From: an uncultured Bacteroidales bacterium
Lineage (GTDB): Bacteria > Bacteroidota > Bacteroidia > Bacteroidales > Bacteroidaceae
Length of the DNA: 64,000 nucleotides
NCBI GenBank assembly: GCA_902779165.1
Contig: CACZAN010000001.1
Coordinates: 62,001 to 126,000, forward strand
Direction: 5' to 3'
In this document: positions 13,812 through 59,559 of the stretch, in pieces
Numbering within the stretch: position 1 is the first letter of the stretch
Layout: every line of letters begins with the position of its first letter
Translations under genes and position numbers: made by a program
The notes under the pieces: model-generated
Told to the model about the DNA's origin: nothing
Database searches by the model: none
What the model saw: only the letters and a program-made list of their open reading frames with translations

Positions 13812-14789
13812 ATGAGACAGATTAAATGTATCGGTATTCTCACTTCCGGCGGCGACTCGCCCGGAATGAATGCAGCCATCCGCGCCGTGACACGTGCAGG
13901 CATTGCCAATGGCTTCAAAGTCAAAGGTATCTATCGAGGCTACGAAGGCCTCATCCATAAGGAAATCAAGGAGTTCACGACCGAGAGCGTTTCGGGTATC
14001 ATCGGCCGCGGAGGCACCATCCTCAAGACCGCCCGCTCCAAGGACTTCATGACCGAGGAAGGACGCAAGCGCGCCTACGACAGCATGGTAGAAGCTGAAA
14101 TCGATGCCCTCGTCATCATCGGAGGCAATGGGTCGCTCACCGGCGCCCGCCTTTTCGCTGCCGAATACGACGTTCCCTGTATTGGTCTGCCTGGCACCAT
14201 CGACAACGACCTCAATGGAACAGACCTCACCATCGGCTACGACACCTCGCTGAACACCATCATGGGGTGTGTCGATAAGATTCGTGATACTGCCAACTCC
14301 CACGAGCGTATTTTCTTCGTGGAGGTGATGGGGCGTGATGCCGGTTTCCTTGCCCAGAATTCAGCCATTGCAGCAGGCGCCGAGGCCGCAATCATCCCAG
14401 AAGAGCAGACCGAGGTCGACCAGCTCGCACAATTCATCGGGCGGGGAATACGCAAATCGAAGTCCAGCTCCATCGTCATCGTCAGCGAGAGCCCCAAGTG
14501 CGGCGCTATGTACTACGCAGAACGTGTGCGCAACGAGTATCCCCAGTTCGATGTCCGCGTCTCCATCCTTGGACATCTCCAGCGTGGCGGTTCTCCCTCT
14601 GCCCAGGACCGTATCCTTGCCTCCCGCCTCGGAGTAGGAGCCATCAACGCCCTGCTCGACGGTCAGCGCAACGTGATGGTAGGTATCAAGAACGACGAAG
14701 TCGTCTACGTGCCCTTCTCCAGTGCGGTCAAGTCCGACAAGCCCCTCAAGCGCGAACTCATCACAGCCCTCGAGGTCCTCAGTCTTTAA
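13812..14789 (+). CDS. pfkA: ATP-dependent 6-phosphofructokinase
   Basis: The 325-residue protein carries the full PfkA signature: [16 protein letters not shown] near the N-terminus (ATP loop), GGNGSLTGA near residue 100, [12 protein letters not shown] with the catalytic Asp near 125-130, [11 protein letters not shown] near 170 and [14 protein letters not shown] near 255. It phosphorylates fructose 6-phosphate to the 1,6-bisphosphate, the committed step of glycolysis, in the cytoplasm. GGN in the ATP-binding loop (where E. coli PfkA has GGD) is seen in several families, so phosphate-donor specificity (ATP against pyrophosphate) is not settled by sequence alone. The gene has no visible promoter of its own. 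Confidence 0.93.
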
Positions 14790-14824
14790 ACTCAAGTCAG
14801 TCGTTTGGAACCTTACGTCAGGCG

Positions 14825-15110
14825 GCCTACGTATATACCTAAAGCCATTTATGTATATACGTGGAGCCGCCGACGTATATACGTGTAGTCGCCGACGCCT
14901 ATATCTGTCGCCGCCGACGCCTATCTGTCTCTGTCCTTACGGCCTGTTGTCTCATGCTGTCTCACCCGTGAGACACGCGAGTTCCACTACTGGAACTCGT
15001 GAATTCCACTGCTGGAACTCGTGAATTCCACTACTGGAACTCGCGAATTCCATAGGTGGAACTCATGAATACGCCTACAGGAACGTAGGCATTCGACTAC
15101 TGCGGTGTAT
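14825..15110. repeat. Drifting 22-bp-period array, 13 units
   Basis: Thirteen consecutive 22-bp units fit one exact frame (starts 14825, 14847, 14869 and so on to 15089). Neighbouring units resemble each other but the sequence drifts along the array. Units 1-3 share a GTATATAC core and unit 4 a related CTATATCT; units 3-5 begin GCCGACG; unit 7 contains TGTCTCA-N4-TGAGACA; units 8-11 are GARTTCCA-N4-TGGAACTC palindromes with a 2-nt linker. The array lies between convergent genes and codes for nothing evident. Its period is too short, and its units too variable, for a CRISPR. A second array of the same period is at 59318-59559. Confidence 0.85.
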
Positions 15111-15126: not shown

Positions 15127-15272
15127 TTGCAAAAAGTTGACGCAAAAACACTCCGAACACTCCGATACACTCCGAATCTTATGATCAGTTTGCCATCTGA
15201 TGATGACATTTTGAGGTGATAATTCGGAGTGTATCGGAGTGTTCGGAGTGTTTTTGCGTCAACTTTTTGCAA
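15127..15272. repeat. Perfect 51-bp inverted repeat with 44-nt loop
   Basis: The arms 15127-15177 and 15222-15272 are exact reverse complements over 51 bases. Each arm holds three copies of a 9-bp word ACACTCCGA or its complement. The 44-nt loop contains TCAGTTTGCCATCTG at 15185-15199, almost identical to the loop core of the inverted repeat at 59180-59269. It lies between the 3' ends of pfkA and the convergent Ig-like gene, so it could act as a bidirectional terminator. I see no target-site duplication. Confidence 0.9.
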
Positions 15273-15321: not shown

Positions 15322-18300
15322 TTATTTCACCACGACCCGGCGCCCGCCGCGCACATAGATGCCGCGCGTGGGCTGCTGGCGCGAGTCGATGCGTCGTCCG
15401 CTGAGGTCATAGAGCTCATCGCCACAGGCTTCGCTCTCTGCTCCCTCATCAGGCAAGCCCTTGATATACGTCGTCACACCCCATTCATCCGTGAATGCCG
15501 ACTGCACCTTCACGCCCGCGCTGCTGGCAGGCCCTTCGATATAGGCGGAGAACGCTTTCAGCGTTGCCGTGCTGCCGCCCTTCTTCAGGGCGCCGGCTCC
15601 GTTCACCACGCCATACCTGCCGCTCATGCTCATTTCAGGGTTGAAGTTTGAGGTCATCGACCAGTCTGAGAAGATTCCTGCGGCACCAACGTTATTGCCG
15701 TAGCCCGCTTTCGCCTCCACCGTTGTCTCCTCTGCCTCCTCGACTTCCACATTCGTCCAAGTCGGATTCGTCACAGTGGCACCGAGGTGCAGGATGTAAG
15801 GCTGATTAGCCGTGATGTCGCCGTCCGTCACCTTGTTGAAATGTAACGTATATCCATCAGCCTGACTATACGTCACCGTCTCCAACTGCGCCACCCAGTC
15901 ATCCGCATTGGCTGCACGTCCAGTCAGCGCCGCAACGGTGGTGGAAAAGGGTAGGGCGAGGGACGAGTAGCCGGCGGGTAGGGTGCGGGAGAGGGTGACG
16001 GTGCCGTACTCCGAAAATTCGATAACGGGAGTTTCTGTAGGATTGAGGACAAGTACAGGCTTTACAACCTGGATGGTGTATGTCACATCCAATGCGTAGA
16101 AGTCATCGGTTTGTTCGCGCACCAGTCGGACGGTCGTTGTGCCTTCTTTGAGAGCTGTCAGCGTGAAAGTATTGCTGCTGAAGCTGGCCGAAACGATGGT
16201 TTCGTCGGCAATGGTCAGAGCGCTCTCTGTAATGAGGGCATCGGGGCGGATCGTGATATTGTCCCCTCCGAGTGGGAACAAGTTAGTACCGTCCGTGAGC
16301 GAAGTGTAAACGGTGACGTAGTCTCGCTTGATGACGTTGAAGGAGCGCGTAATGCTGGCAGCGTTATACTTGTAGTTGCCAGCCTGTGTAGCCGTGATTA
16401 TGATGTTGGCGCCACCACCCTTTGCCGTCAGGGCACCTGTCTCTACATCGACCTCCAAGGCCGTCGGGTTGCTGGAAGAATAAGTAACGGCAAGTCCTGT
16501 TGGCGAGCCGGTTGCGGTGTTTGTCGTCAGCACTGGACTAACACCCACTTCCAGCGTTCGGGCAGCCTCATCGAGGTCATAGTCCCATGTCAGTGTCTGA
16601 TCGTACTTATTCACCGTTAACACTACGCTTTTCGTAGCACCATAGTAATAATCAGTAGCCGGCTGCGTAAGGGTAAGTCTTGCCGTACCTGCACCCACTG
16701 CCGTAATCTTGTTGGTAGAGAGATTGTATGTAATCACATTCTCACCTGTTATGTTTTCTATGGTTGGAGTGATTGTAGCATCGCTGTTTTTAGAAGAATA
16801 AACATTTGCGATGACATCATCAACCTTTACACTCTGGTCTTCTATTATAGCCAGCGTGTTAGCGCGCTTAGCTGCCGTGGCTGTCAAGGTAATTGTCTGT
16901 GAGTAGAACAAATCGCCAATTGTGATGGTGGCTGACTCAGGACCTAAATGGTCAGGGTCTGGAGTATAAGTCACTGTAAAGGTCTTCGTGCCGTCTACAC
17001 CACAAATATAAGTTGTTCCTTGACTGCTCGTAGCCGTTTTTTCGCTTTGTACACTAATAGAAGTAATACTCGGTACGAAATGTGAATTATTGGAATTTAT
17101 ACTGATATTTCCACCATTTGTAGAGCTGTAGTTCACCGTAATCGTAGCGGTGGGTTTGGGAGTCACGTCGGTGTATACCGTGCCAAAGGCCGTTCTGTCG
17201 GATGAAGCACGGACGTAGGTCTTGCGAGTTACCTTAACATCCTTGATACAGTGCTTCAGTGTGCTACCCACCCTCAGGAAAAAGCGTATCTTTGTCGCAC
17301 TCTCAGGTATATCGCACGTTATGTCACCTCCATAACTTGTAGATAAACTTTCTGTATACATGGCCGCATTGTCTCCCGTCTGCCAACTCCCATTAACATA
17401 ACACTGAACTTCAAGTTTTGTTACTCCCGCCACTGACCTATGAGCCTTAAATGATAAGATCTCACCTGGACCATTTAATGTATGTTCACTAAAGTATGTT
17501 CCTTGTGTACTAGTAGGCGTATGGCTTTCTTCGGCTTCCTCGTACAGAACATAGCCCTCCTTCTCGTCGGAGTTATTCACTCGTATGGTGAATGAAGCTA
17601 AGCCAGCTTCGTATTTATAGGTTTCAGCCTGACGAATCTCATAGATATCGGTTCCTTGGGTACTACCGGCTGTAATGGTGCCAGACGAATAGGTGGTAAA
17701 CGAACCGCTGGTGCGGGTTACCGTTGGGGCTGCGCCTGTGGTATTGGCATAGGTATAGGAGAGAGAAGCTGTAGCACCGTACTTCAACTTGATATTCGTG
17801 GCACTACCTCCAGCAAGTGTAATCGATATCGGGTTGCTGAGTTTCGTCACCGTGATGTCGTAGGTGGAGCTGGTCCAAGCAGCGTACTTATCGGTGGCTG
17901 CTTGGGTGAAGGTTATCTTGGCAGCACCAGCATTCTTGGCAGTGATAACGCCATCAGCATAGGTGATAACATCGCTGCCGTTGTTGACACTTGATGATAA
18001 TACCTGATTCGTGATGGTGCCCACAATAGCTGTACCGGTGTTGTTCTTACCAGTGAAGGTGACGGCAATCGTGCCGTCAGGGTTCGCCGTCAGCGAAGCA
18101 AGACTTGCGGCAAGGCCGTTGGGAACCTTAGCCACGGTGATATTGTAGGTTGCAGAGGCAGAATAGTGGGTGGTATTACCCGGGTCGTTGAGCGTCACGG
18201 TGGACGAGCCGACCTTCAGAGCCGTCAGCGTGATAACATTGCCCGACTTCGATATGCTCACAACAGTAGGATCCGAAGAAACGTATGTAAAACCGGAAGT

Positions 18301-19371
18301 GGTATTCGCCACCGTGATGGTGGGGGTATCATCTACATAGGATGTGTAATCATTAACACTACTGCTTTGGAAACCAGAAGTATCAAACGTGGGCTGGAAC
18401 TTATTGATGACCGTGAACTGGCGCGTAGCCTCCACAGCATTATATTCGTTGTTACCTGCCTGACGCGCCGTAATCGTGATGGCATCAACTGATGCTTTCA
18501 CGCCCGTAACATCACCGCTGCTATTCACCGTTGCCACACTGGGGCTGTTGCTCGTATAGGTCACTGCCAACCCAGTTGCGGATCCCGAGACAGCAGATTT
18601 TGCAGTAGCCGCTGCCAGGCCTGTATGCGTAATACCCGCTACCACATTCGGGTTGTATGGATCCTGCGTCCACGTCAATGTCTGATTAGCCTTGAACCAG
18701 GCATACAAGGTAAGGCTCGCTTCGGTGCCAACGGATGTATTGTTTATCGTAGGCGTATATTTAGCCGAGGTCGACACCAGAGTGGTGTCTGTACCTACTA
18801 TGCTGAACCATCCTTCGAATGTACAATTAGCATTTGGTGTGGCCGTAAAGGTGGCTGTAGTAGACTTTGATGTATTGCCCACATCACCAAGAATCTTTGA
18901 TGTCACAGTGGCCGTCGTCGTACCATAGCTTCCATTAATTGTATTGGCGGTGGCAGAGAACTTGAAGACAGGTTTGAAAAGGGCGTAGTAAGTTGCAGAA
19001 GTAGGGGAGTTCTCAGTTGTTGATGATGCTGTTATTTCAACAATATACGGTATACTTGTTGATAAAGCGGTGCCAGTACAATTCTGATCATTAAACCAAC
19101 CGACAAATTCATACCCGCTATTGGCCTGTGCATATAGATAGTATTTATGCTTAGGTTCACTTTTTGCTTCTTCAGAATTAGTTGCTGATGATGTAGTATT
19201 ATACGTTGATGGAGTAGCCTGAGTTTTACTTACATAAACCTTACCATTACCTACGGCATTTGCTGTTGCCTTGGAGTAATACGTATTGTTACCGGCCAAT
19301 GCCGACATACTGAACATGGTGAGCATCACCACGAACAAACCTAAAAACCTTAAATGAATCATTCTACTCAT
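15322..19371 (-). CDS. Large secreted Ig-like repeat protein with T9SS-like tail
   Basis: The product (about 1349 residues from the ATG at 19371) has a signal peptide (MSRMIHLRFLGLFVVMLTMF, cut after SALA). The first 220 residues hold InlB-like units with GWF motifs (EFVGWFNDQNC, FEGWFSIVG). Residues about 230-1150 are a train of Big_2-like Ig domains, seen as repeated T.S.P..A.V....V.G....TIT..Q.G...Y......F.V patterns. The tail contains LYDLSGRRI and RGIYVRGGRRVVVK, a short T9SS sorting signal. It is probably a surface adhesin or stalk. The open frame extends to a TTG at 19380, but the ATG at 19371 gives the better start. It follows the DUF4105 gene by a few bases, so the two are probably co-translated. 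Confidence 0.85.
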   Translation of the reverse strand: MSRMIHLRFLGLFVVMLTMFSMSALAGNNTYYSKATANAVGNGKVYVSKTQATPSTYNTTSSATNSEEAKSEPKHKYYLYAQANSGYEFVGWFNDQNCTGTALSTSIPYIVEITASSTTENSPTSATYYALFKPVFKFSATANTINGSYGTTTATVTSKILGDVGNTSKSTTATFTATPNANCTFEGWFSIVGTDTTLVSTSAKYTPTINNTSVGTEASLTLYAWFKANQTLTWTQDPYNPNVVAGITHTGLAAATAKSAVSGSATGLAVTYTSNSPSVATVNSSGDVTGVKASVDAITITARQAGNNEYNAVEATRQFTVINKFQPTFDTSGFQSSSVNDYTSYVDDTPTITVANTTSGFTYVSSDPTVVSISKSGNVITLTALKVGSSTVTLNDPGNTTHYSASATYNITVAKVPNGLAASLASLTANPDGTIAVTFTGKNNTGTAIVGTITNQVLSSSVNNGSDVITYADGVITAKNAGAAKITFTQAATDKYAAWTSSTYDITVTKLSNPISITLAGGSATNIKLKYGATASLSYTYANTTGAAPTVTRTSGSFTTYSSGTITAGSTQGTDIYEIRQAETYKYEAGLASFTIRVNNSDEKEGYVLYEEAEESHTPTSTQGTYFSEHTLNGPGEILSFKAHRSVAGVTKLEVQCYVNGSWQTGDNAAMYTESLSTSYGGDITCDIPESATKIRFFLRVGSTLKHCIKDVKVTRKTYVRASSDRTAFGTVYTDVTPKPTATITVNYSSTNGGNISINSNNSHFVPSITSISVQSEKTATSSQGTTYICGVDGTKTFTVTYTPDPDHLGPESATITIGDLFYSQTITLTATAAKRANTLAIIEDQSVKVDDVIANVYSSKNSDATITPTIENITGENVITYNLSTNKITAVGAGTARLTLTQPATDYYYGATKSVVLTVNKYDQTLTWDYDLDEAARTLEVGVSPVLTTNTATGSPTGLAVTYSSSNPTALEVDVETGALTAKGGGANIIITATQAGNYKYNAASITRSFNVIKRDYVTVYTSLTDGTNLFPLGGDNITIRPDALITESALTIADETIVSASFSSNTFTLTALKEGTTTVRLVREQTDDFYALDVTYTIQVVKPVLVLNPTETPVIEFSEYGTVTLSRTLPAGYSSLALPFSTTVAALTGRAANADDWVAQLETVTYSQADGYTLHFNKVTDGDITANQPYILHLGATVTNPTWTNVEVEEAEETTVEAKAGYGNNVGAAGIFSDWSMTSNFNPEMSMSGRYGVVNGAGALKKGGSTATLKAFSAYIEGPASSAGVKVQSAFTDEWGVTTYIKGLPDEGAESEACGDELYDLSGRRIDSRQQPTRGIYVRGGRRVVVK

Positions 19372-19382
19372 AATCAACAAAT

Positions 19383-21298: not shown

Positions 21299-21313
21299 TT
21301 CTTCTTTCTTTTA

Positions 21314-21393
21314 CTAGGTAGTCCTAGGTTGTCTTAGGAAGTCCTAGGGAATCTTAGGTTATCCTAGGCTGTCCTATGGAATCCTACGTGGTC
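21314..21393. repeat. 10-bp-period array, 8 units, upstream of the four-helix gene
   Basis: Eight 10-bp units in exact register follow YTAGGNNRTC or close to it: CTAGGTAGTC, CTAGGTTGTC, TTAGGAAGTC, CTAGGGAATC, TTAGGTTATC, CTAGGCTGTC, CTATGGAATC, CTACGTGGTC. A ninth partial unit (TTAG) forms the stop codon of the lipoprotein gene at 21394. The array ends 15 nt before the four-helix ATG, so it occupies that gene's promoter/leader region. Confidence 0.88.
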
Positions 21394-22236
21394 TTAGTCG
21401 AATGTTCCCTCATAGTCTTCTCCTCCGATGATGGGAATTACTTCGCCGGTGACGGAGTTGGCGGTGAGGGTGATGACAGTGTGGCGACCGGCAGCTACGG
21501 TGATGGTGCCTGTGGCACCGCGGATGTCGGTGACTTGACTGCCGGATTTTGCGTCGGCAGTGATGGAGTAGGACAGGGTACCGTTGGCCGGGACGTCGAA
21601 GTAGGTGACGGTCGGCAGTCCATAGGTGGACTGACCGATGGTGGCTTCTGCGGCAGTGGCGGCATCCGTGATGGTGACGCTGCGAGTGCCGTTGGTGATG
21701 GTGATGCGTGGCAGCTCGTACTTCGCGGAGAAGGTGTTGTCGAGTGCCACAGTGACCTTAGCATTTGTCGGGGTGCCGAGGTCGATACTGGTAGTGGCGA
21801 CGCCACCTTGTGTGATGGTGAATTGTGTGGAGGTGCCGCTGTAGGCGGGTGCTCCTGCACCGTTTGTGGGTGCTGAGATAGTGGTCTTCGTGGTGGCGGT
21901 GAGTGTATAGGTGCCAGCCTCGAAGATGGCGGCGAAACGGTGATGCCCGTTGCCATCAACGCCGTCGTTGGTGAATGTGAGGGGCAGATTGGCGATGGAT
22001 TCGCCGCTGGTGGTCTGACCCGTAAGGGTGAAATCCAGCGATGAGATGTCCGTGAGCTGTGTGCTGCGCGTCTCGATATATACCTCAGGATCAGAGGATA
22101 ATGAAAGCACGATACGCCCCCTGCTCTCCACCTCAGCCGTAGTGGGGCTGGGGCGGAGGTCATCCTGCTGCTGGCAGCTGACGAGGGTCAGCATTGCCAG
22201 CAACAGAATAGGCATTATGAAACGTATGTGCGTCAT
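21394..22236 (-). CDS. DUF4493-like lipoprotein
   Basis: From the ATG at 22236 the product has about 280 residues: a lipoprotein signal MTHIRFIMPILLLAMLTLVS with lipobox Cys next, then a QQQDDLRPSP linker. The first beta domain starts GRIVLSLSSDPEVYIETRST, the beginning typical of DUF4493-type lipoproteins. A second half (TKYELP-like strands, ITNGTRSVTITDAA) repeats the arrangement of its neighbours. An upstream ATG at 22257 is in frame but lies only 16 nt from the preceding stop and lacks signal-peptide character. Probably a cell-surface lipoprotein; partner unknown. It is the last lipoprotein of the run. Confidence 0.75.
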   Translation of the reverse strand: MTHIRFIMPILLLAMLTLVSCQQQDDLRPSPTTAEVESRGRIVLSLSSDPEVYIETRSTQLTDISSLDFTLTGQTTSGESIANLPLTFTNDGVDGNGHHRFAAIFEAGTYTLTATTKTTISAPTNGAGAPAYSGTSTQFTITQGGVATTSIDLGTPTNAKVTVALDNTFSAKYELPRITITNGTRSVTITDAATAAEATIGQSTYGLPTVTYFDVPANGTLSYSITADAKSGSQVTDIRGATGTITVAAGRHTVITLTANSVTGEVIPIIGGEDYEGTFD

Positions 22237-37111: not shown

Positions 37112-40050
37112 GCCTGAAGGGTAAGATTGAGGTGTTGGGTGCTCGCGTCCATAATCTGAAAAATGTGGATGTGACGATACCGCGGGGTAGCCTTACGGTT
37201 ATCACTGGACTTTCGGGCTCGGGTAAGAGTTCGCTGGCCTTCGATACTTTGTATGCAGAAGGGCAGCGACGTTACATCGAGACCTTCTCAGCATACGCCC
37301 GCAACTTTCTTGGAGGAATGGAGCGGCCTGATGTAGATAAAATTTCGGGACTCTCACCTGTCATCAGCATAGACCAGAAAACGACGAACAAGAATCCCCG
37401 TTCAACAGTGGGCACGACAACGGAAGTGTATGACTTCCTACGTCTGTTGTATGCCCGCGCAGGCGATGCTTTCTCCTGGCGCACAGGGGAGGAGATGGTG
37501 AAATATACCGAGGAACAAATTGTGGATCTCTTATATAATGATTACGCTGGACGCCGCGTGTTACTTTTAGCACCGCTGGTGCGCAACCGTAAGGGGCACT
37601 ACCGTGAACTCTTCGATAGCGTGCGTCGCAAAGGATTCCTGAGAGTGCGGGTGGACGGAGAGATGATGGAGGTACAGCCAGGAATGAAGCTGGACCGCTA
37701 TGTGAACCACTCCATAGAAGTGGTAGTGGATAGGGTGGTGCTGACAGACCCACCCCCAACTCCACCCGTGAGGGAGGGGGACACCTCCGGGATGCAGGAT
37801 AGCACCAACCGACTCAGAAAGAGTGTGGAGCTTTGTCTGAAGATGGGAGAGGGACTGATGATGGTGCTGGATGCCGATGGGGGCGAACCTCGTCATTATT
37901 CTCGTCGTCTGATGTGTCCGACCACGGGGATGAGTTATGCCGACCCCGCTCCGCATAATTTCTCATTCAACTCTCCGCAGGGCTGGTGTCCACGTTGCAA
38001 AGGACTCGGTTACGTAAACCTTATTGATGTACAGAAAGTAATTCCCGACCGATCGCTTTCTGTTCGTGATGGAGGCATCGCCCCGTTAGGAAAGTACAAG
38101 AATCAGATGATATTCTGGCAGATGCAGGCACTGTTGGAGCGTTACGACAGCACCCTTGATACGCCGTTGTCTCAAGTGCCGGAGGATGCCATTGACGAAA
38201 TCTTGAATGGTTGCCCTGAACGCCTGCGTATTCCAGCCTCTATTACCCATACGACCAATGACTATTACATCGATTATGATGGACTGACGAAATATATCCA
38301 GTTGTTGCAGGATTCCGAGTCGAGCGCTACGGCACAGAAGTGGGCTGAACAGTTCTCGCGTACAGCCATTTGCCCTGAATGTCATGGACAGCGACTGAAC
38401 CGCGAAGCTTTACATTTCCGTATAGGTGGTAAGAACATTGCAGAACTGGCGAATATGGATGTCAAGGATTTGCTGGATTTTATCATAGCAATCTCCGAGT
38501 CATCTGATAAATCAGATTCTTCTATGCCCCGCCTCTCGGCACGTCAGCGCCAGATAGCTCCGGAAATCTTGAAAGAGATTCGTGCGCGTTTACAGTTTCT
38601 GGTGGATGTCGGGTTGGATTATCTCTCGCTCTCGCGTTCCAGTCAAAGCCTGTCTGGAGGCGAGAGTCAGCGTATTCGGTTGGCTACGCAGATCGGTTCC
38701 AAGTTAGTGAACGTCCTTTATATCCTCGACGAACCGTCTATCGGCTTGCACCAGCGCGATAACCGCAGGCTCATCCACTCTCTGAAAGAGTTACGAGATA
38801 CAGGTAATACGGTGATTGTCGTAGAACACGACGAAGAGATGATGCGCGAGTCGGATTATATTATTGATATGGGTCCCCTCGCAGGACGAAAGGGTGGGGA
38901 AGTGATGTTTCAAGGGAGTTATGAGGAGTTGGTGGAAGACACACCCCCGACCCCTTCCAAAAGGGAGGGGAGTCTGACTGCAAAGTATTTGCGGGGGGAG
39001 ATGAAGATTGAAGTGCCTGTAGAACGTAGGACTGGTAATGGAACGTTTCTTGAAATCAAGGGCGCACGGGGAAATAACCTGAAGGATGTGGAGGTGAGGC
39101 TGCCGCTTGGTACGTTCATCTGTGTTACCGGCGTCTCAGGCTCTGGTAAGAGCACCCTGATAAACGATACCCTACAACCCATCCTGTCGCAGCATTTTTA
39201 TCGTTCCCTACGTGACCCGCTGGCTTATGACTCTGTCAGTGGGCTGGAACATTTGGATAAAGTGGTGAGTGTGGACCAGAGTCCTATAGGTCGCACGCCC
39301 CGCTCCAATCCTGCAACTTACACTGGCGTATTTTCTGATATCCGTGATCTTTTCGTTTCATTGCCCGAGGCAAAGATACGAGGCTATAAGCCTGGCCGTT
39401 TCTCTTTTAATGTGAAGGGCGGTCGCTGCGAAACTTGTGGGGGAAATGGCTATAAGACTATAGAAATGAACTTCTTGCCAGATGTCATGGTGCCGTGCGA
39501 GGAATGTCGCGGCAAACGATACAACCGCGAGACACTTGAAGTGCGTTTCAAGGGAAAGAGCATCGCTGACGTTCTGGATATGACCATCAATCAGGCGGTG
39601 GAATTCTTCGAAAACCAACCAACGATTCTTCAGAAGATACGCACCTTGCAGGATGTGGGCTTAGGCTACATCAAATTGGGACAGAGTTCGACGACCCTGT
39701 CAGGAGGTGAGAGTCAACGTGTGAAGCTGGCAACAGAACTGGCCAAACGCGACACTGGCCACACCTTTTATATCCTTGATGAACCCACCACGGGGTTGCA
39801 TTTCGAGGATATCCGCGTACTGCTTGGGGTGTTGCAGCGTTTGGTCGATAAGGGAAACACGGTTCTCGTTATCGAACATAATTTGGATGTCATAAAGTCT
39901 GCAGATTATCTGGTGGATCTGGGTCCTGAAGGTGGCAGAGGTGGAGGCCGCATCCTCTCGACAGGTACTCCCGAACAAGTAGCCAAATCAAATGAAGGCT
40001 ATACACCTCAATTCCTTCGTGAAATATTTAAAGACATGCGTCCACTGTAA
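37108..40050 (+). CDS. uvrA: UvrABC excision nuclease subunit A
   Basis: The 980-residue UvrA contains two ABC ATPase modules: Walker [10 protein letters not shown] near residue 35 and GVSGSGKST near 675-683, two LSGGESQR signatures, and zinc-finger cysteines (CPRCKGLGY near 300; CETCGGNGY and CEECRGKRY near 775-800). UvrA dimers find bulky DNA lesions and load UvrB. Two inserts are unusual: residues about 214-225 ([11 protein letters not shown]) and 612-622 ([11 protein letters not shown]), each encoded by a C-rich/G-rich palindromic sequence and lying at places where other UvrA proteins have shorter surface loops. The frame and all core motifs stay intact. Confidence 0.97.
37750..37787. repeat. 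Palindromic insertion inside uvrA (copy 1)
   Basis: A CACCCCC-AACTCC run followed by GAGGGAGGGGG forms a self-complementary element that translates in frame as [10 protein letters not shown]. Its shape and peptide match copy 2 at 38941-38973. Confidence 0.7.
38941..38973. repeat. Palindromic insertion inside uvrA (copy 2)
   Basis: ACACCCCCGA precedes CCCCTTCC and GGGAGGGG, which pair as an 8-bp stem (one G-T) around an AAAA loop. In frame it gives PPTPSKREG, very like copy 1. Confidence 0.75.
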
Positions 40051-43361: not shown

Positions 43362-46300
43362 ATGAGCGACAGCAATAACAACAATGGTACCATCCGACCA
43401 GATTCCAGTGGTTTCGGAAATAACAATTCTAGTAATAATAATAATAACTCCGGTGGCACCATCCGTCCCGGCAGCGGCGGTGCTCCCGCAGGCAATTCCG
43501 GTGGCACCATCCGTCCTGGCAGCGGCGGTGCTCCCGCAGGCAATTCCGGTGGCACCATCCGTCCTGGCAGCGGCGGTGCTCCCGCAGGCAACTCCGGTGG
43601 CACCATCCGTCCTGGCAGCGGCGGTGCTCCCGCAGGCAATTCCGGTGGCACCATCCGTCCTGGCAGCGGCGGTGCTCCCGCAGGTAATTCCGGTGGCACC
43701 ATCCGTCCTGGCAGCGGCGGTGCTCCCACAGGCAATTCCGGTGGCACCATCCGTCCTGGCAACGGCGCTGCTCCCGCAGGTATTTCTGGTGGCACCATCC
43801 GTCCCGGCAACAGCGGTGCTCCCGCAGGCAAGTCCGATGGCACTCTGCGCCCAAATGGTGGAGCCTCTTTTACTACTGGTGAAGGAAAGTCTATTCATCA
43901 TGAAAACAACGGTACTACCAAAGGCGTGGCTGACGCTGCAGGTGCTGGCGCCAGCATCGCACAAGCTGACAGTAAGGCTGTTGCCGATGTCACCCGTACT
44001 TATGAGGATTCCTATGTTCTCAACGGCATCCGCTACAAAGTCGTCAAGGTTATCAGTGAAGGAACAGGCGAGGCGATTGTGCTTCTCGTGGAGAATGCTG
44101 GCAACCAATATGTCCTGAAACTCTACTACGAAGGTATCAGTCCCAACCATGCAATCTTGGATAAGGTTAAGAGTGTTCGTGCTATGAATTTGTTGGTCGC
44201 CACTGTGGATCATGGTGTCTGGTGCAAGGCCGACAATAAGAACGGTAAGGACGTAACAGATGCAGACCGCAACACGCGTCGTGATTTTGAACTCATGCTT
44301 TATTATCCCTACGGTTCTCTCGAAAAGCTGGATATTAAAGGTGATGAAAAGCGTCTGTGTGAGTTCTTTGCAAAAATGGCTATGGCAATCAACCTTTGCC
44401 ACACCAAAGGTTTCCTCCATCGCGATGTTAAGCCTGGTAACTTCCTCTTTACAGACAAAGACCAGCATTCAGTGGTCCTCGGCGATTTTGGCATTGCTGT
44501 TGAATTAGGTCCTAACGGCGTAGCCACAACGAACCAGGCTCGCACGAAGGTATATGCTGCTCCTGAGAGTTATATCTCCACAGAAGGTGAGGTGGATATT
44601 ACAGCCAAGAGTGACTTTTATTCACTAGGTATGACCCTTATTTGCCTTTGGATGGGTGAAGAACAATTTGCCAAACAGGTGGCTCAGAGCGAACGCGCGC
44701 TGGCAAAGATGAAGACCTACGGCAAGCTGCCCTATCCTACGGGCATGAGCGAACACACGCTCAGCCTCATTATGGCTTTGACAGCTCCAGATCCAGCGTC
44801 GCGCCCAGACTTTGAGGAAATCAAGGAGTGGATTAGTGGCAAAGACCCCTTCCTCAGCTTCCTTGGAAAGAAACAGCAACAGGAAGAGAAAGAACGTGGT
44901 TTCGAAGTCCTATTCAATGGTGCCAAGAACCTTGTGGCTCACTCCCTCGAAGAACTGGCTCAATTTATGTTGGCCGACCCACAACTGGGTATCAAGTACC
45001 TCTATAATGGTCGTGTAAGTAAATGGACAGAAGAGGCAGGCCGCCCCGAAGTCGGAGCGGACATCGAAGTGCTCACAGAGAAGAAATATCCTAAGGATCA
45101 ACAGGCAGGACTCTATGCTGCTTGTCTGACCTTGGATCCCGAAATGCCATATACCGACGTACAAGACCAATATCTGCGTACCTCTACAGACATTGCAGAT
45201 TCATTACTCCGGAACTTCGATACCTACAAGAAACGTCTCGCCAATAGCAACGATGAACTCTATATCTATATGTCGATGTCCGGACAGGAGGTGTTGGCAA
45301 AGAAAGCCGCCATGGAGTTCAAGAGTTCAAGTGTAAGCGAGAACGAAGCCCTGCGCCGACTCATCTATCAACTCGATCCCTCGCGCCCATTCATTATTTT
45401 AGATAAGGCAGGCAAAAAGCATTACTGCAATACCCCCGACGACATCATCCGCCTCTCGAATGCAGTAAATTTTGATCAGGAGAGCATGAAGGCGCTGTAT
45501 GACGATGCGTTCTATAATTGGCTCGGCGCTCGTAACAAGGGACTACTTGCTAAGGTGAAGAAGGCTGTGGCCGAGTTGCCCTCGAACAGTACCATTCGTT
45601 TCGTCACTGTGCTGTATAATCTGAACCCGAAGGTCAGTTACTACATGGAACTTGACCCGTCATCTTCGGACTACATCTTTACAATCACCCAGCTGGCAGA
45701 ACTCTTCAATCATAAACTTGACGAATACCAGCACGAGCCCAAGGACACTCCACGCTGGACGCGAGCTGATGAGATGCTGACCGACATAAACAACATCGAT
45801 GACACGCTGCTTTACGCATACCTCAAGTCAAAAGATGGACGCTACGACCAGTGGATCGACTGGATTCGTCATTGCACCAATGTCAAGACGAAGGAAAACC
45901 TGCAAAAGGCAGGTCCCTATAACTGGAGACTTGGTACCTACAAAGCTATCCGTGGTATGGGGGTTGATCCGTACTATCGCTTCCCGAAGTCTAACAAGAA
46001 GATTACTGATCCCTCAGAACTTAGTTCCATACCCTCTGATGAGATTCGCGATGAGATGCAGAATGGCATGCTGGCCGACTGGTTGGCAGTCTTCTATCAG
46101 GAAGATCCCAATATCCGTTATGACCAACTGCCTAAGTACTCCTTCGAGCAGAAGTGCGAAGAATATACTCGGAAGTTGGGTGAACTCGATAGGGATAACC
46201 AGAAGTATCAGGACTTCACCGATGCCCAAGGTCAGGTGATGCATATGGCAGGTCAGCTCAAGAGTACCCGTGCCCAACTCATCACCCTTCGTGCTATCGT

Positions 46301-57402: not shown

Positions 57403-59166
57403 ATGATTATTTGTAGACGACCACTCCTGGCATTAGCCCTGTTGCTGTCACTGCACGTTTCTGTGGTGGCGGCAGAGCAGGCGGCTGTGGAGTCGTCATG
57501 TCCCATGATCAAGATTGAGGCAGAACGCTTGCCGGACTTGAATGTGCCGCGAGGATGTCATTCACTCTTCCTCGCTGGCGGAGAGGTGGTTGCGGCAGGC
57601 GGACACACCAGCGGCTTCGTGCTCACGGAGACTGCTGAATACTTCGCCGACGGCGAGTGGCACCTCATGGACATGGTCTACACCGCTGACTTCTCCCTCT
57701 GCCAGGTGCTCCCATCCGGCGAGGTGCTGCTGGCTGGAGGCATGAAGGAAAACCTGGGAATCGGACAGCAATGGACCATGCAGACCTACAATCCCGCCAC
57801 GCATACCTTCACCGGCTTCGGCTGTCTCGACAAGAAGCGAGCCTGGCCGTCGGGAGGTGTTGTGGACAGCGGACGTGTGGTCATCTCCGGCAACTGGTAT
57901 GCCAGCGATGCCATCGGATGTTTCCATGGAGGGTGGGCGGTCGATTCCGTGAAGCCCGTGACGCAGGAGCGCGTGAATCCTTTTATCGTGCGTACTGCGT
58001 CGGATAATGCCATCATCTTCGGATGGGCCAATCCCAAAGGCGTCCAATACGATTCCATCTGGGCCGACCGCTTCCGTGGTGAGCCGTTCCGCGTTCCGCT
58101 TCTGGACGAATGGAGGCAACTGTTGGCCGTAGGCACGGACCACCGTATGTTGGATTGCTGCGTAGGCGACACCGCCACCGGCGACTTCACCTACCTGCTG
58201 CCTGTGCAGAATCGGGCAGGGGAGGTGGCAATCATAAAGATCTGTGGCGAGGACTTCTCGCTGCTGCCCACGGCGCAGCCAGTGCCTGCGCAGGGTATCA
58301 ATGGCATCATTCATTATTTCGATTGCGTGGTGGTGGACCGCCGCCTGCAATGTGCTTATCTTGCGGGTTTGGATGTGAAGCATGTGCTCTATATCCTGCG
58401 GATCGACAAACCCGCCTCTGGATGGAATGACGGCGAAGCGCAACTGACCCTGTTCTACACCGATCCGCTGCCCGACCCCGTACAGTGCATCCCTGTGCTG
58501 ACGGACGATGGTGACCTGGTATTTGCCGGAGGTGCCATGGAGGCGAGTGATACGGCGTTCCACACCACCAACTTCAACCCCAACAAAGCCGCCTACATCC
58601 TGCATTTAGGCAGTCTCGCCGCCCCGGCAGCTGCAGACTCCTACTGGTGGTGGATTGTCGGAATCCTCGTATTGGTGGTGTTGGGGGGCTATGTGATCTT
58701 CAGGATAAGGAGGACTAATGAGGCTAATGAGGCTAATGAGGCTAATGGGGCTCATGGGGCCAATGAGGCTGATGAGGCTAATGGGGCCAATGAGGCTAAT
58801 GAGGCTAATGAGGCTGATGGGACCGATGAGGCTAATGAGCTGATAGCCCGCATACGCGCCTTGATGGAAGAGCGGAAACTCTTCCTCAGCAGCGACTTGA
58901 AACTTTCTGACGTTGCCGGAGAACTCGGTACCTCGCGCTCCGCTGTCACCAACAGCATCCGAGCGGCCTGCGGCTGCACCTTCCCCAATTTTGTCAACGC
59001 CTACCGCGTGGACTATGTGAAACAGCTGATGCAGGCCAATCCAGAGGCCAAGATCAGCACCCTCTACCTCGAGGCTGGATTCGCCAACGAGACTTCTTTC
59101 TTCCGCACCTTCAAGGAAATCTCAGGTATGACTCCTACTGAGTGGCGCACGGCAAACCAAAAATAA
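57403..59166 (+). CDS. Membrane-spanning beta-propeller/AraC-type regulator
   Basis: The 587-residue protein has a signal or anchor (MIICRRPLLALALLLSLHVS), an extracytoplasmic domain of Kelch-like blades (about 45-400; GGEVVAAGGHTSGF, SGEVLLAGGMKEN, DGDLVFAGGAMEAS), one membrane helix (about 414-435, YWWWIVGILVLVVLGGYVIF), a cytoplasmic linker of (N-E-A) repeats at 438-479, and a C-terminal AraC helix-turn-helix domain (about 480-587; LKLSDVAGELGTSRSAVTNS and YLEAGFANETSFFRTFKEIS). It joins ligand sensing and DNA binding in one chain without a kinase. The next surface gene, whose promoter has a 14-bp direct repeat, is a likely target. No promoter was seen in the 20 nt after the tRNA terminator. 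Confidence 0.88.
   Translation: MIICRRPLLALALLLSLHVSVVAAEQAAVESSCPMIKIEAERLPDLNVPRGCHSLFLAGGEVVAAGGHTSGFVLTETAEYFADGEWHLMDMVYTADFSLCQVLPSGEVLLAGGMKENLGIGQQWTMQTYNPATHTFTGFGCLDKKRAWPSGGVVDSGRVVISGNWYASDAIGCFHGGWAVDSVKPVTQERVNPFIVRTASDNAIIFGWANPKGVQYDSIWADRFRGEPFRVPLLDEWRQLLAVGTDHRMLDCCVGDTATGDFTYLLPVQNRAGEVAIIKICGEDFSLLPTAQPVPAQGINGIIHYFDCVVVDRRLQCAYLAGLDVKHVLYILRIDKPASGWNDGEAQLTLFYTDPLPDPVQCIPVLTDDGDLVFAGGAMEASDTAFHTTNFNPNKAAYILHLGSLAAPAAADSYWWWIVGILVLVVLGGYVIFRIRRTNEANEANEANGAHGANEADEANGANEANEANEADGTDEANELIARIRALMEERKLFLSSDLKLSDVAGELGTSRSAVTNSIRAACGCTFPNFVNAYRVDYVKQLMQANPEAKISTLYLEAGFANETSFFRTFKEISGMTPTEWRTANQK
58714..58839 (+). repeat. 9-bp coding microsatellite in the AraC regulator
   Basis: Fourteen 9-bp units, mainly AATGAGGCT, encode (NEA)n with drifted units (NGA, HGA, DEA, GTD). 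Length changes would keep the frame and alter the linker between membrane helix and DNA-binding domain. Confidence 0.9.
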
Positions 59167-59179
59167 AAACTTTTTCTCG

Positions 59180-59269
59180 AAAATCCCCCGCATCCACCGA
59201 TTCACCCCTTCTGTTTGCTATCTGTGCATTGCAAAGTTGGGGCAACAATCGGTGGATGCGGGGGATTTT
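59180..59269. repeat. Perfect 23-bp inverted repeat with 44-nt loop
   Basis: Arms 59180-59202 and 59247-59269 are exact reverse complements, and A/T-rich flanks extend the pairing imperfectly. The 44-nt loop holds TCTGTTTGCTATCTG (59210-59224), matching the loop core at 15185-15199 at 13 of 15 bases and at the same offset. It begins 14 nt after the AraC regulator stop, so it probably ends that transcript. Confidence 0.9.
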
Positions 59270-59317
59270 TGAAGAAAAAAAATAATTTGATGGTGGAGGA
59301 GCAGGCCTCTTCCACGA

Positions 59318-59559
59318 TAGGACGTATCGTCTTCCGCCGTAGGACGTATGGTCTTCCGCCGTAGGACGTATGGTCTTTCGCGACAGGACGTGACGGCTTT
59401 TATGTATATACATCTCGGCCTCCACGTATATACGTCTCGGCCTCCATGTATATACGTCTCGTTCCTCCCGTGCAGTCCTTGCGCGAGGTAAGTATAGTCT
59501 CTTCGCGCAGTAACTATACTTCCAGCGCGAAGAGACTATAGTTACTTCACACACGGGGG
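59318..59559. repeat. Second drifting 22-bp-period array, 11 units
   Basis: Eleven 22-bp units in exact register (59318, 59340, 59362 and on to 59538) drift along the array: three begin YAGGACGTATSGTCT-like, the middle ones begin ATATACGTCTCGG, and the last ones (ATAGTCTCTTCGCGC, ATACTTCCAGCGCG, ATAGTTACTTC) are partly inverted copies of one another, for example AGTCTCTTCGCGC against GCGCGAAGAGACT. A less clear unit may start at 59296. No coding function is seen. The remainder to 59629 shows nothing further. Confidence 0.85.

What the first reader, a model, noticed from the sequence alone, without database searches (positions are those of the whole stretch)
14825..15110. Drifting 22-bp-period array between convergent genes
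Thirteen 22-bp units sit in one exact register although the sequence changes from GTATATAC-type units to GARTTCCA-N4-TGGAACTC palindromes along the array. Constant period with changing sequence argues for duplication plus unit-by-unit divergence, or for a protein that counts helical turns (two turns per unit) and tolerates changing bases. Neither a CRISPR nor a simple satellite behaves like this.
Basis: seen in the sequence. Interest (0 to 1): 0.9.

Follow-up and report, generated by a model that had tools for sequence, protein, structure and literature searches.

The report
Genome-wide 22-bp palindrome lattices
Certain Bacteroidales bacteria carry many small DNA arrays whose symmetric sites sit exactly 22 letters apart, in some species at fixed places in the chromosome, while each lineage writes the sites in its own sequence; they are probably read by a poorly studied histone-like protein family.

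Summary
The array is real: lag-22 identity 0.644 against 0.252±0.026 in shuffles, and centres of three unrelated palindromes share one 22-bp phase. It is one of many: 25 such arrays were called in 463 kb sampled from this genome, and 105 of 105 GTATATAC pair distances up to 120 bp there are multiples of 22. Other genus members carry 22-bp arrays of other palindromes. Motifs read from single arrays predicted genome-specific families: CCGCACGCGG pairs gave 603 and 482 hits in two genomes and at most 5 in 59 others (a third motif predicted little). In a 20-kb collinear block of five species (about 80% DNA identity) all four array positions are occupied in every species, in four motif dialects. 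In two dense genomes arrays are spaced more evenly than random gaps allow. HU-HIG (PF18291) histone-like genes lie within about 210 bp of the array in 10 of 38 array-bearing genomes. Best reading: a lattice bound cooperatively by HU-HIG-type dimers, two helical turns per dimer, whose sequence is rewritten while pitch, and in one clade position, are kept. Binding is inferred, not shown. Closest published relative: the 23-nt BrickBuilt repeat of Porphyromonas gingivalis. Not a CRISPR, not RAYT-dependent, not a plain satellite.

The parts
14807..15110 (.). 22-bp lattice array (about 13 rows; drifting palindromes) between convergent genes
14829..14928 (.). block A: three GTATATAC-type palindromes (14829-14840, 14851-14862, 14873-14884) and two degenerate ones (14895, 14917)
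14959..14974 (.). block C: GTCTCA-N4-TGAGAC palindrome, centre 14966|14967, same phase as block A
14979..15064 (.). block B: four GARTTCCA-N4-TGGAACTC palindromes (14979, 15001, 15023, 15045) on the same lattice
15067..15110 (.). degenerate tail of block B
15127..15272 (.). 51-bp perfect inverted repeat with 44-nt loop beside the array; the same hairpin family lies near arrays at 3 other loci of the sampled genome stretches
59314..59555 (.). second 22-bp array: GACGTATGG-type rows, three GTATATAC units (rows from 59402, 59424, 59446), CTATAG-type rows
59180..59269 (.). 23-nt inverted repeat arms (59180-59202, 59247-59269) beside the second array
   Evidence: (arms read from the sequence)
13812..14789 (+). 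pfk-like gene (325 aa) whose 3' end abuts the array
   Evidence: name recalled from the sequence
15322..19380 (-). 1352-aa ORF, convergent neighbour

Best explanation
The array is one site of a genome-wide cis-acting lattice. Each unit is a palindrome for one protein dimer; neighbouring dimers touch, so dyads must be 22 bp (two helical turns) apart, while the base sequence that is read can change. The likely reader is a member of the HU-HIG branch of the HU/IHF family. Each lineage uses its own motif (dialect), set by its HU-HIG paralogue(s). In one clade the sites keep their chromosomal position while the motif is rewritten, and are spaced about 5 kb apart, which suggests nucleoid or domain organisation; in other genomes an array lies beside the HU-HIG gene itself, which suggests autoregulation. 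SHOWN by computation: pitch, dyad phase, lineage-specific motifs, conserved positions in one five-species block, even spacing in two genomes, adjacency to HU-HIG genes. INFERRED: binding by HU-HIG, cooperativity, and the chromosomal role.
For: Period: in 120 orthologous loci (421,324 bases) 25 of 38 called arrays have period 22 (21: three, 23: one, 24: three; 4 of the 25 are G000's own arrays that chose the loci); G068 100 kb gave 14 of 14; G043 380,605 bases gave 57 at 22 plus 2 at 44 out of 79. Phase: dyads of unrelated palindromes coincide modulo 22. Dialects: CCGCACGCGG-N12 pairs 603 in G043, 482 in G068, 0-5 in the other 59 genomes (reversed-pattern control 0 in those two, at most 6 elsewhere); TAACACGTTA-N12 442 in G008, 126 in G068, 41 or fewer elsewhere. 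Position: four of four arrays of a 20-kb block are matched in G068, G008, G005 and G052 (16 of 16; 14 anchored on both sides, 2 on one side); no other array was called in the block. Coding site: arrays in frame inside the M16 peptidase linker, same 141-nt length, different palindromes. Spacing: 5.4% of 56 spacings under 2.5 kb against 24-30% for random gap placement, 0 of 1000 simulations as low under each of four gap rules. Trans factor: 12 HU-HIG genes in the 112 GTATATAC loci, 10 within 200 bp of the array core (P about 4e-8); Pfam names 9 of the 12, and G064 L207, as HU-HIG (the other 3 rest on my own model). They come from 10 of 38 genomes (hand tally over, counting L077 at 212 bp); no other neighbour family recurred in more than 2. 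HU-HIG 5' flanks have their best palindrome pair at exactly 22 bp in 5 of 15, controls 12 of 456 (P 8e-5); the one G070 gene looked at carries that genome's own motif CAACRYGTTG.
Against: No binding data. The PF18291 model also rings in 9 of 14 control genomes, E. coli among them, so the 1-19 matches per genus genome include ordinary HU and do not discriminate. Of the 5 positive HU-HIG flanks one (L465) is weak and one (L207) was known beforehand to have an array; without both it is 3 of 14 against 4 of 408 (P 9e-4). By a plainer test (best lag in 500 bp upstream) 22 wins in 6 of 14 HU-HIG flanks and in 78 of 374 control genes. No called array lay beside the three HU-HIG genes of G043/G008 that were fetched whole. 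Outside the G043 clade positions are much less conserved: directly behind pfk only G000 and G064 of 30 have a clear array, G014 a weak one; behind the HIT gene 5 of 30. The order-level sample (271,870 bases, 10 genomes) held no 22-bp array and one of 23. The motif of G020 (AAGAGCACGCTCTT) proved rare even in G020 (4 hits). The CV of the spacing differs little from two of the four nulls.
Confidence: 0.5

Rival explanations
1. REP/BIME- or MITE-like non-autonomous mobile repeats, amplified separately in each lineage and homogenised by transposition or ectopic gene conversion; the 22-bp pitch is set by the mobilising enzyme, the even spacing by target immunity.
For: In G043/G068 the CCGCACGCGG family is a uniform 88-bp element with terminal inverted repeats AAAACGCCGC...GCGGCGTTTT; 33 of 48 runs of two or more units have exactly four. 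High copy number and genome specificity.
Against: Orthologous positions stay occupied at about 80% DNA identity while the motif differs; flanks show no conserved block beyond the 88 bp and no direct target duplication that I could see by eye; strong Y1/RAYT matches (E below 1e-15) in only 7 of 61 genomes and no match in G068 (G000 and G043 do have one); in-frame arrays of constant length in the M16 linker.
Confidence: 0.24
2. Lattice sites for a different DNA-binding protein; HU-HIG genes are merely frequent targets.
For: Arrays adjoin many unrelated genes; HU-HIG adjacency could be regulation by another factor.
Against: HU-HIG was the only neighbour family seen in more than 2 of 38 genomes, by a crude ORF choice that could also have missed others, and several HU-HIG promoters carry 22-bp pairs of differing motifs.
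Confidence: 0.14
3. RNA-level function: bidirectional intrinsic terminators or 3'-UTR hairpins, so that pairing, not sequence, is conserved.
For: Convergent gaps enriched in G000 (14 of 25 arrays, 9 tandem, 1 divergent, 1 undetermined) and 16 of 33 convergent gaps occupied in G043/G068; G043 ends are GC stem plus T-run, and 4 of 23 terminator-like sites of L365 (17.4 expected by shuffling) fall on its arrays; all arrays folded are more stable than shuffles, z -1.6 to -14.5.
Against: 11 of 35 divergent gaps are occupied too; in-frame arrays inside a coding sequence; single units TAACACGTTA, CAACACGTTG, ATCACGTGGGT, CGACGCGTCG form no hairpin in the folding test; uncompensated C-A pairs on the sense strand in L136 (read).
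Confidence: 0.08
4. Neutral minisatellites made by slippage and drift.
For: 44-bp duplications and variable unit numbers in G000 and P. pasteri arrays.
Against: One period across many species and motifs, shared dyad phase, genome-wide dialects, conserved positions.
Confidence: 0.03

Closest known systems
BrickBuilt element of Porphyromonas gingivalis (PMC4596501; abstract, section 5, first part of section 7 and search passages seen)
   Same: Dispersed intergenic tandem repeats of near-22 (23) nt, 19 loci per genome, species-restricted sequence; the paper's table lists one element (BrickBuilt_14) beside a PF00216 DNA-binding protein (that PF00216 is the HU family); it also cites 22-nt repeats seen in W83 without locations.
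   Different: Described there as a MITE with IS5-like terminal repeats and leader/tail. In the parts seen no palindromic lattice, dialects at conserved positions or HU-HIG link are described. Its repeat (up to 3 mismatches) is not in our window and its terminal repeat is not beside the arrays.
REP/BIME palindromes with RAYT transposases (PMC3733652, passages seen)
   Same: Intergenic palindromes, mosaic arrays, genome-specific families.
   Different: No strict 22-bp lattice is described in the passages seen; Y1/RAYT is missing from genomes rich in our arrays; here the motif is replaced at fixed positions.
HU/IHF nucleoid proteins and their sites (recalled)
   Same: Candidate reader is of this family: the PDB matches of one array-adjacent protein are HU proteins.
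   Different: Known HU is largely sequence-neutral and IHF has one conserved motif (recalled); lineage-specific palindromes at 22-bp pitch did not turn up in the searches made.
Cooperative operator arrays such as phage repressor operators (recalled)
   Same: Dyads about two turns apart with dimer-dimer contacts.
   Different: Here many sites per genome, with changing motif, in one clade at fixed places.

Membership tests
BrickBuilt MITE | 23-nt unit AGAYCATARTATCCTCTCRTRTG | tested here: not met
   0 matches in the window with up to 3 mismatches; period is 22
BrickBuilt MITE | Terminal repeat GAGACCTTTGCA flanking the array | tested here: not met
   One chance-level match at 37996, far from the arrays
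REP/BIME with RAYT | Y1 transposase in the same genome | tested here: inconclusive
   Strong PF01797 match in 7 of 61 genomes, G000 and G043 among them; none in G068 and in many other array-bearing genomes, so not required
CRISPR | Conserved repeat with unrelated spacers of set length | tested here: not met
   The palindromes themselves change along the array and the rows between them are near-repeats; cas genes were not searched
Intrinsic terminator | Stable RNA stem plus T-run at a gene 3' end | tested here: inconclusive
   Met in G043 elements, not by single units of other dialects; arrays also occur inside a gene and in divergent gaps
HU-HIG binding lattice | HU-HIG gene present in array-bearing genomes | tested here: inconclusive
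   61 of 61 genus genomes match PF18291, 60 over the cut-off, but the model also rings in 9 of 14 control genomes including E. coli
HU-HIG binding lattice | Array or 22-bp operator at HU-HIG genes more often than chance | tested here: met
   10 of 12 within 200 bp in array loci; best palindrome pair at 22 in 5 of 15 flanks against 12 of 456; 10 of 15 flanks show none
HU-HIG binding lattice | Direct sequence-specific binding at 22-bp pitch | not testable with these tools
   needs biochemistry
Known RNA family | Rfam match at the array | tested here: not met
   Window: tRNAs only. Four array-bearing loci by E-value: only microRNA-precursor models far below their gathering scores, some lying on arrays

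The most novel reading that the evidence does not exclude
A bacterial chromatin-like system with dialects: sequence-specific HU-HIG proteins coat palindromic lattices of two-turn pitch at fixed chromosomal positions about 5 kb apart, and protein and sites co-evolve so fast that each lineage rewrites all sites in place, as centromere or PRDM9 systems do in animals.
Probability: 0.35. Interest if true: 0.95.

Novelty: categorically new. Interest (0 to 1): 0.9.

Why it matters
A cis element that keeps its pitch, and in one clade its place, but not its sequence escapes ordinary homology searches. If HU-HIG proteins read it, a histone-like family of unknown role in Bacteroidota gets a function, a code and a test system, with natural dialect replacements for studying how a DNA-binding protein and hundreds of its sites change together.

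Tried and rejected
Conserved array position at pfk: clear only in G000 and G064 of 30, weak in G014, and 1.3 kb further on in G072. RAYT mobilisation: not required. Rfam: nothing at threshold. RNA hairpin function: not general. HU-HIG copy number: not discriminating, and its control rings in 9 of 14 other genomes. The AAGAGCACGCTCTT motif of G020 gave only 4 hits there and 4 in G057, so not every array motif is abundant. Palindrome excess by column shuffles was clear in only 20 of 48 arrays at 22 (2 of 26 at other periods). In one search one G059 locus was counted twice; one search repeats the test without it (mean within-genome similarity 0.527 against 0.473, sd 0.011; 0 of 500). The HU-HIG model was built with spurious antisense ORFs in its seed; one search repeats the count with a clean model. 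The neighbour clustering used a crude ORF choice that recovered only 5 of the adjacent HU-HIG genes; the 10-of-38 figure adds those by hand. My array caller misses some arrays: the fourth G068 site of the block scored 0.576 against its threshold 0.58 and was seen by a separate lag test.

Full report
Observation. The window array is real and exactly phased. Lag-22 identity over 14825-15110 is 0.644 against 0.252 (sd 0.026) in shuffles. Dyads of GTATATAC-, GTCTCA- and TTCCA-type palindromes lie at 14834, 14856, 14878, 14966, 14988 and 15032, all in one phase modulo 22; three other weak centres (14816, 14912, 15043) are off that phase, the last by exactly half a unit. A second array of the same kind lies at about 59314-59555. 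A lag scan without motif of the window and 20 further stretches (463,428 bases; the 20 were chosen because they hold GTATATAC pairs) gave 30 runs at lag 22, 20 at its multiple 44 and at most 14 at any other lag; in intergenic DNA 22, 15 and at most 7. The array caller finds 25 arrays of period 22 or 44 there. All 105 distances up to 120 bp between GTATATAC copies in these stretches are multiples of 22. In the whole genome GTATATAC-N14-GTATATAC has 96 forward matches with up to 2 mismatches against 7 for the reversed pattern.

Grammar. Arrays in this genome mostly have a GTATATAC core, often with GATAAGACGT-type rows on one side and TTCCA-, GTCTCA- or CTATAG-type rows on the other (L129 is an exception in orientation). 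The TTCCA and GTCTCA rows are in phase with the core where they touch it; the CTATAG rows keep 22 bp among themselves but not always the core's phase (read). Long hairpins of two families lie 12-406 bp from an array at all seven places found, in stretches that were chosen for arrays.

Distribution. By record title 110 of the 112 are Bacteroidota, among them Porphyromonas pasteri, catoniae and gingivicanis, Segatella maculosa, Prevotella vespertina, Capnocytophaga and many uncultured Bacteroidales; the two others are a Spiroplasma and an alphaproteobacterial MAG. Within the window's own genus the motif is abundant in only 2 of 25 genomes (78 and 37 matches, others 0-2). Several other genus members instead have 22-bp arrays of other palindromes, found without any motif; the G004, G010 and G071 samples had none. 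Ten genomes of the same order sampled at 271,870 bases gave none at 22 and one at 23, although one of those stretches had been chosen for a GTATATAC pair. Two 50-kb stretches of E. coli K-12 gave no 22.

Period without motif. At 120 orthologous loci of four genes (30 each; 421,324 bases) the called periods were 22 in 25 cases and 21, 23 and 24 in 3, 1 and 3, of 38 arrays; 4 of the 25 are the G000 arrays by which the genes were chosen. Array positions at these genes are only partly shared: pfk clear in 2 of 30, HIT gene in 5 of 30, lacZ upstream in 5 of 30 at period 22 plus one at 21, and G001.

Dialects. The M16 peptidase of several species carries an array in frame in its interdomain linker. 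Linker length is 141 nt in eight species (G052, G008, G020, G051, G043, G069, G005, G068); the palindromes differ (TAACACGTTA in G008, CCGCACGCGG type in G043 and G068, AAGAGCACGCTCTT in G020) while the spacer TTGCCAACG recurs in G008, G043 and G068; G005 has no array there, and G051 and G069 have a different hairpin with only 0.62-0.65 identity at lag 22. In 23 of 50 M16 sequences the script could not locate the linker, G012 and G024 among them, whose arrays show. Three motifs were then searched in 61 genus genomes. CCGCACGCGG-N12: 603 in G043, 482 in G068, 0-5 elsewhere; reversed control 0 in those two, up to 6 elsewhere. TAACACGTTA-N12: 442 in G008, 126 in G068, 41 in G005, 25 in G052, 17 and 15 in G012 and G024, at most 8 elsewhere. 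AAGAGCACGCTCTT: only 4 in G020, 4 in G057 and 1 in G069. Within-genome similarity of array consensus exceeds label-permuted values (0 of 500).

Position. A 20-kb block of G043 is collinear with G068, G008, G005 and G052 at about 80% DNA identity. G043 has four arrays in it. Every other genome has an array at each of the four places, and no other was called in the block: CCGC-type in G068, TTAACGTGTTAA in G008, CCCCTATAGGGG or CGACG-type in G005, CACGTGGG type in G052, with period 22 or near its double (44, 43). Two of the 16 are anchored on one side only (G068 place 4, seen by a lag test just under the caller's threshold; G052 place 2 at a contig break). Earlier chance overlaps pointed the same way.

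Density and spacing. G043 has 59 arrays in 380,605 bases and G068 14 in 100,000; contigs with known hits were chosen, so these densities may be high. After merging arrays under 700 bp apart, 5.4% of 56 spacings are below 2.5 kb, against 24-30% in four random-gap nulls (0 of 1000 each); 52% fall in 3-6 kb against 29-36%; the CV is 0.72 against 0.73-0.82. Occupancy is 16 of 33 convergent, 11 of 35 divergent and 40 of 206 tandem gaps. The gene calls come from a script of my own.

Element form. In G043/G068 33 of 48 runs of two or more units have exactly four, in an 88-bp block bounded by AAAACG and CGTTTT, with no conserved flank beyond weak C-run/G-run hairpins. This looks REP- or MITE-like, but strong Y1 transposase matches occur in only 7 of 61 genomes and none in G068.

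Reader. PF18291 (HU-HIG) matches all 61 genus genomes, 1-19 times each, but also 9 of 14 control genomes including E. coli, so these counts include ordinary HU. In the 112 GTATATAC loci (782,144 bases) there are 12 HU-HIG genes by a clean local model: 10 lie within 200 bp of the array core (at most 61), one at 212 and one at 742; chance for a 400-bp gene is 0.12, so P is about 4e-8. Pfam names 9 of the 12 and G064 L207 as HU-HIG, far above the ordinary HU model. Counting L077 at 212 bp, the adjacent genes come from 10 of 38 genomes (hand tally over); no other neighbour family was seen in more than 2, by a crude ORF choice. In 15 HU-HIG 5' flanks the best palindrome pair is at exactly 22 bp in 5, against 12 of 456 control genes (P 8e-5); without the weak L465 and the non-blind L207 it is 3 of 14 against 4 of 408 (P 9e-4). 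A plainer best-lag test gives 22 in 6 of 14 against 78 of 374. The G070 flank carries CAACAAGTTG and CAACACGTTG 22 bp apart, the motif of that genome's two sampled arrays; a G043 flank carries TTCGCACGCGAA, sharing the core CGCACGCG of its genome-wide element. PDB matches of one such protein are HU proteins. The published BrickBuilt table also lists one element beside a PF00216 gene.

Mechanism. Unrelated palindromes in one phase, with a pitch of two helical turns, are what cooperative dimers on one face of DNA would require (inference). Replacement of the motif at fixed sites is what a change of reader specificity, or gene conversion among copies, would produce; the data do not separate these two.

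Literature. Searches in the held open-access library listed no description of such lattices or of an HU-HIG target; subscription papers are not covered. The HU-HIG family paper by Burroughs and colleagues is recalled, not seen.

Noticed in passing
window 21310-21400: A 10-bp-period array (CCTAGG about every 10 bp), one helical turn per unit; lag 10, 20, 30 identity about 0.6.
   Followed up: partly
window 15127-15272; L126, L129, L141: Long hairpins (TGCAAAAAGTTGACGC family) repeated in the genome, each 16-406 bp from a 22-bp array.
   Followed up: partly
L330, L335, L315, L314, L319: 22-bp palindromic arrays encoded in frame inside the interdomain linker of an M16 peptidase.
   Followed up: yes
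window 43449-43843: 48-bp tandem repeat of 8 copies, 94% matches.
   Followed up: no
window 58702-58839: 9-bp repeat AGGCTAATG, 15 copies, inside the ORF 57403-59166 that precedes the second array.
   Followed up: no
L042, L072, L113, L120 (Porphyromonas pasteri): Arrays of about a dozen units whose palindromes drift between AGGTATATACCT, AGGAATATACCT, AGGTATATTCCT and AGTTATATTACT in one register.
   Followed up: partly
L110 5567-5752: A second array of period 23 in Porphyromonas catoniae, about 3 kb from the 22-bp array; BrickBuilt also has 23.
   Followed up: no
L435, L439, L444 (G052): 44-bp repeats in which a CCCCCTTTAGGGGG hairpin alternates with CACGTG units.
   Followed up: no
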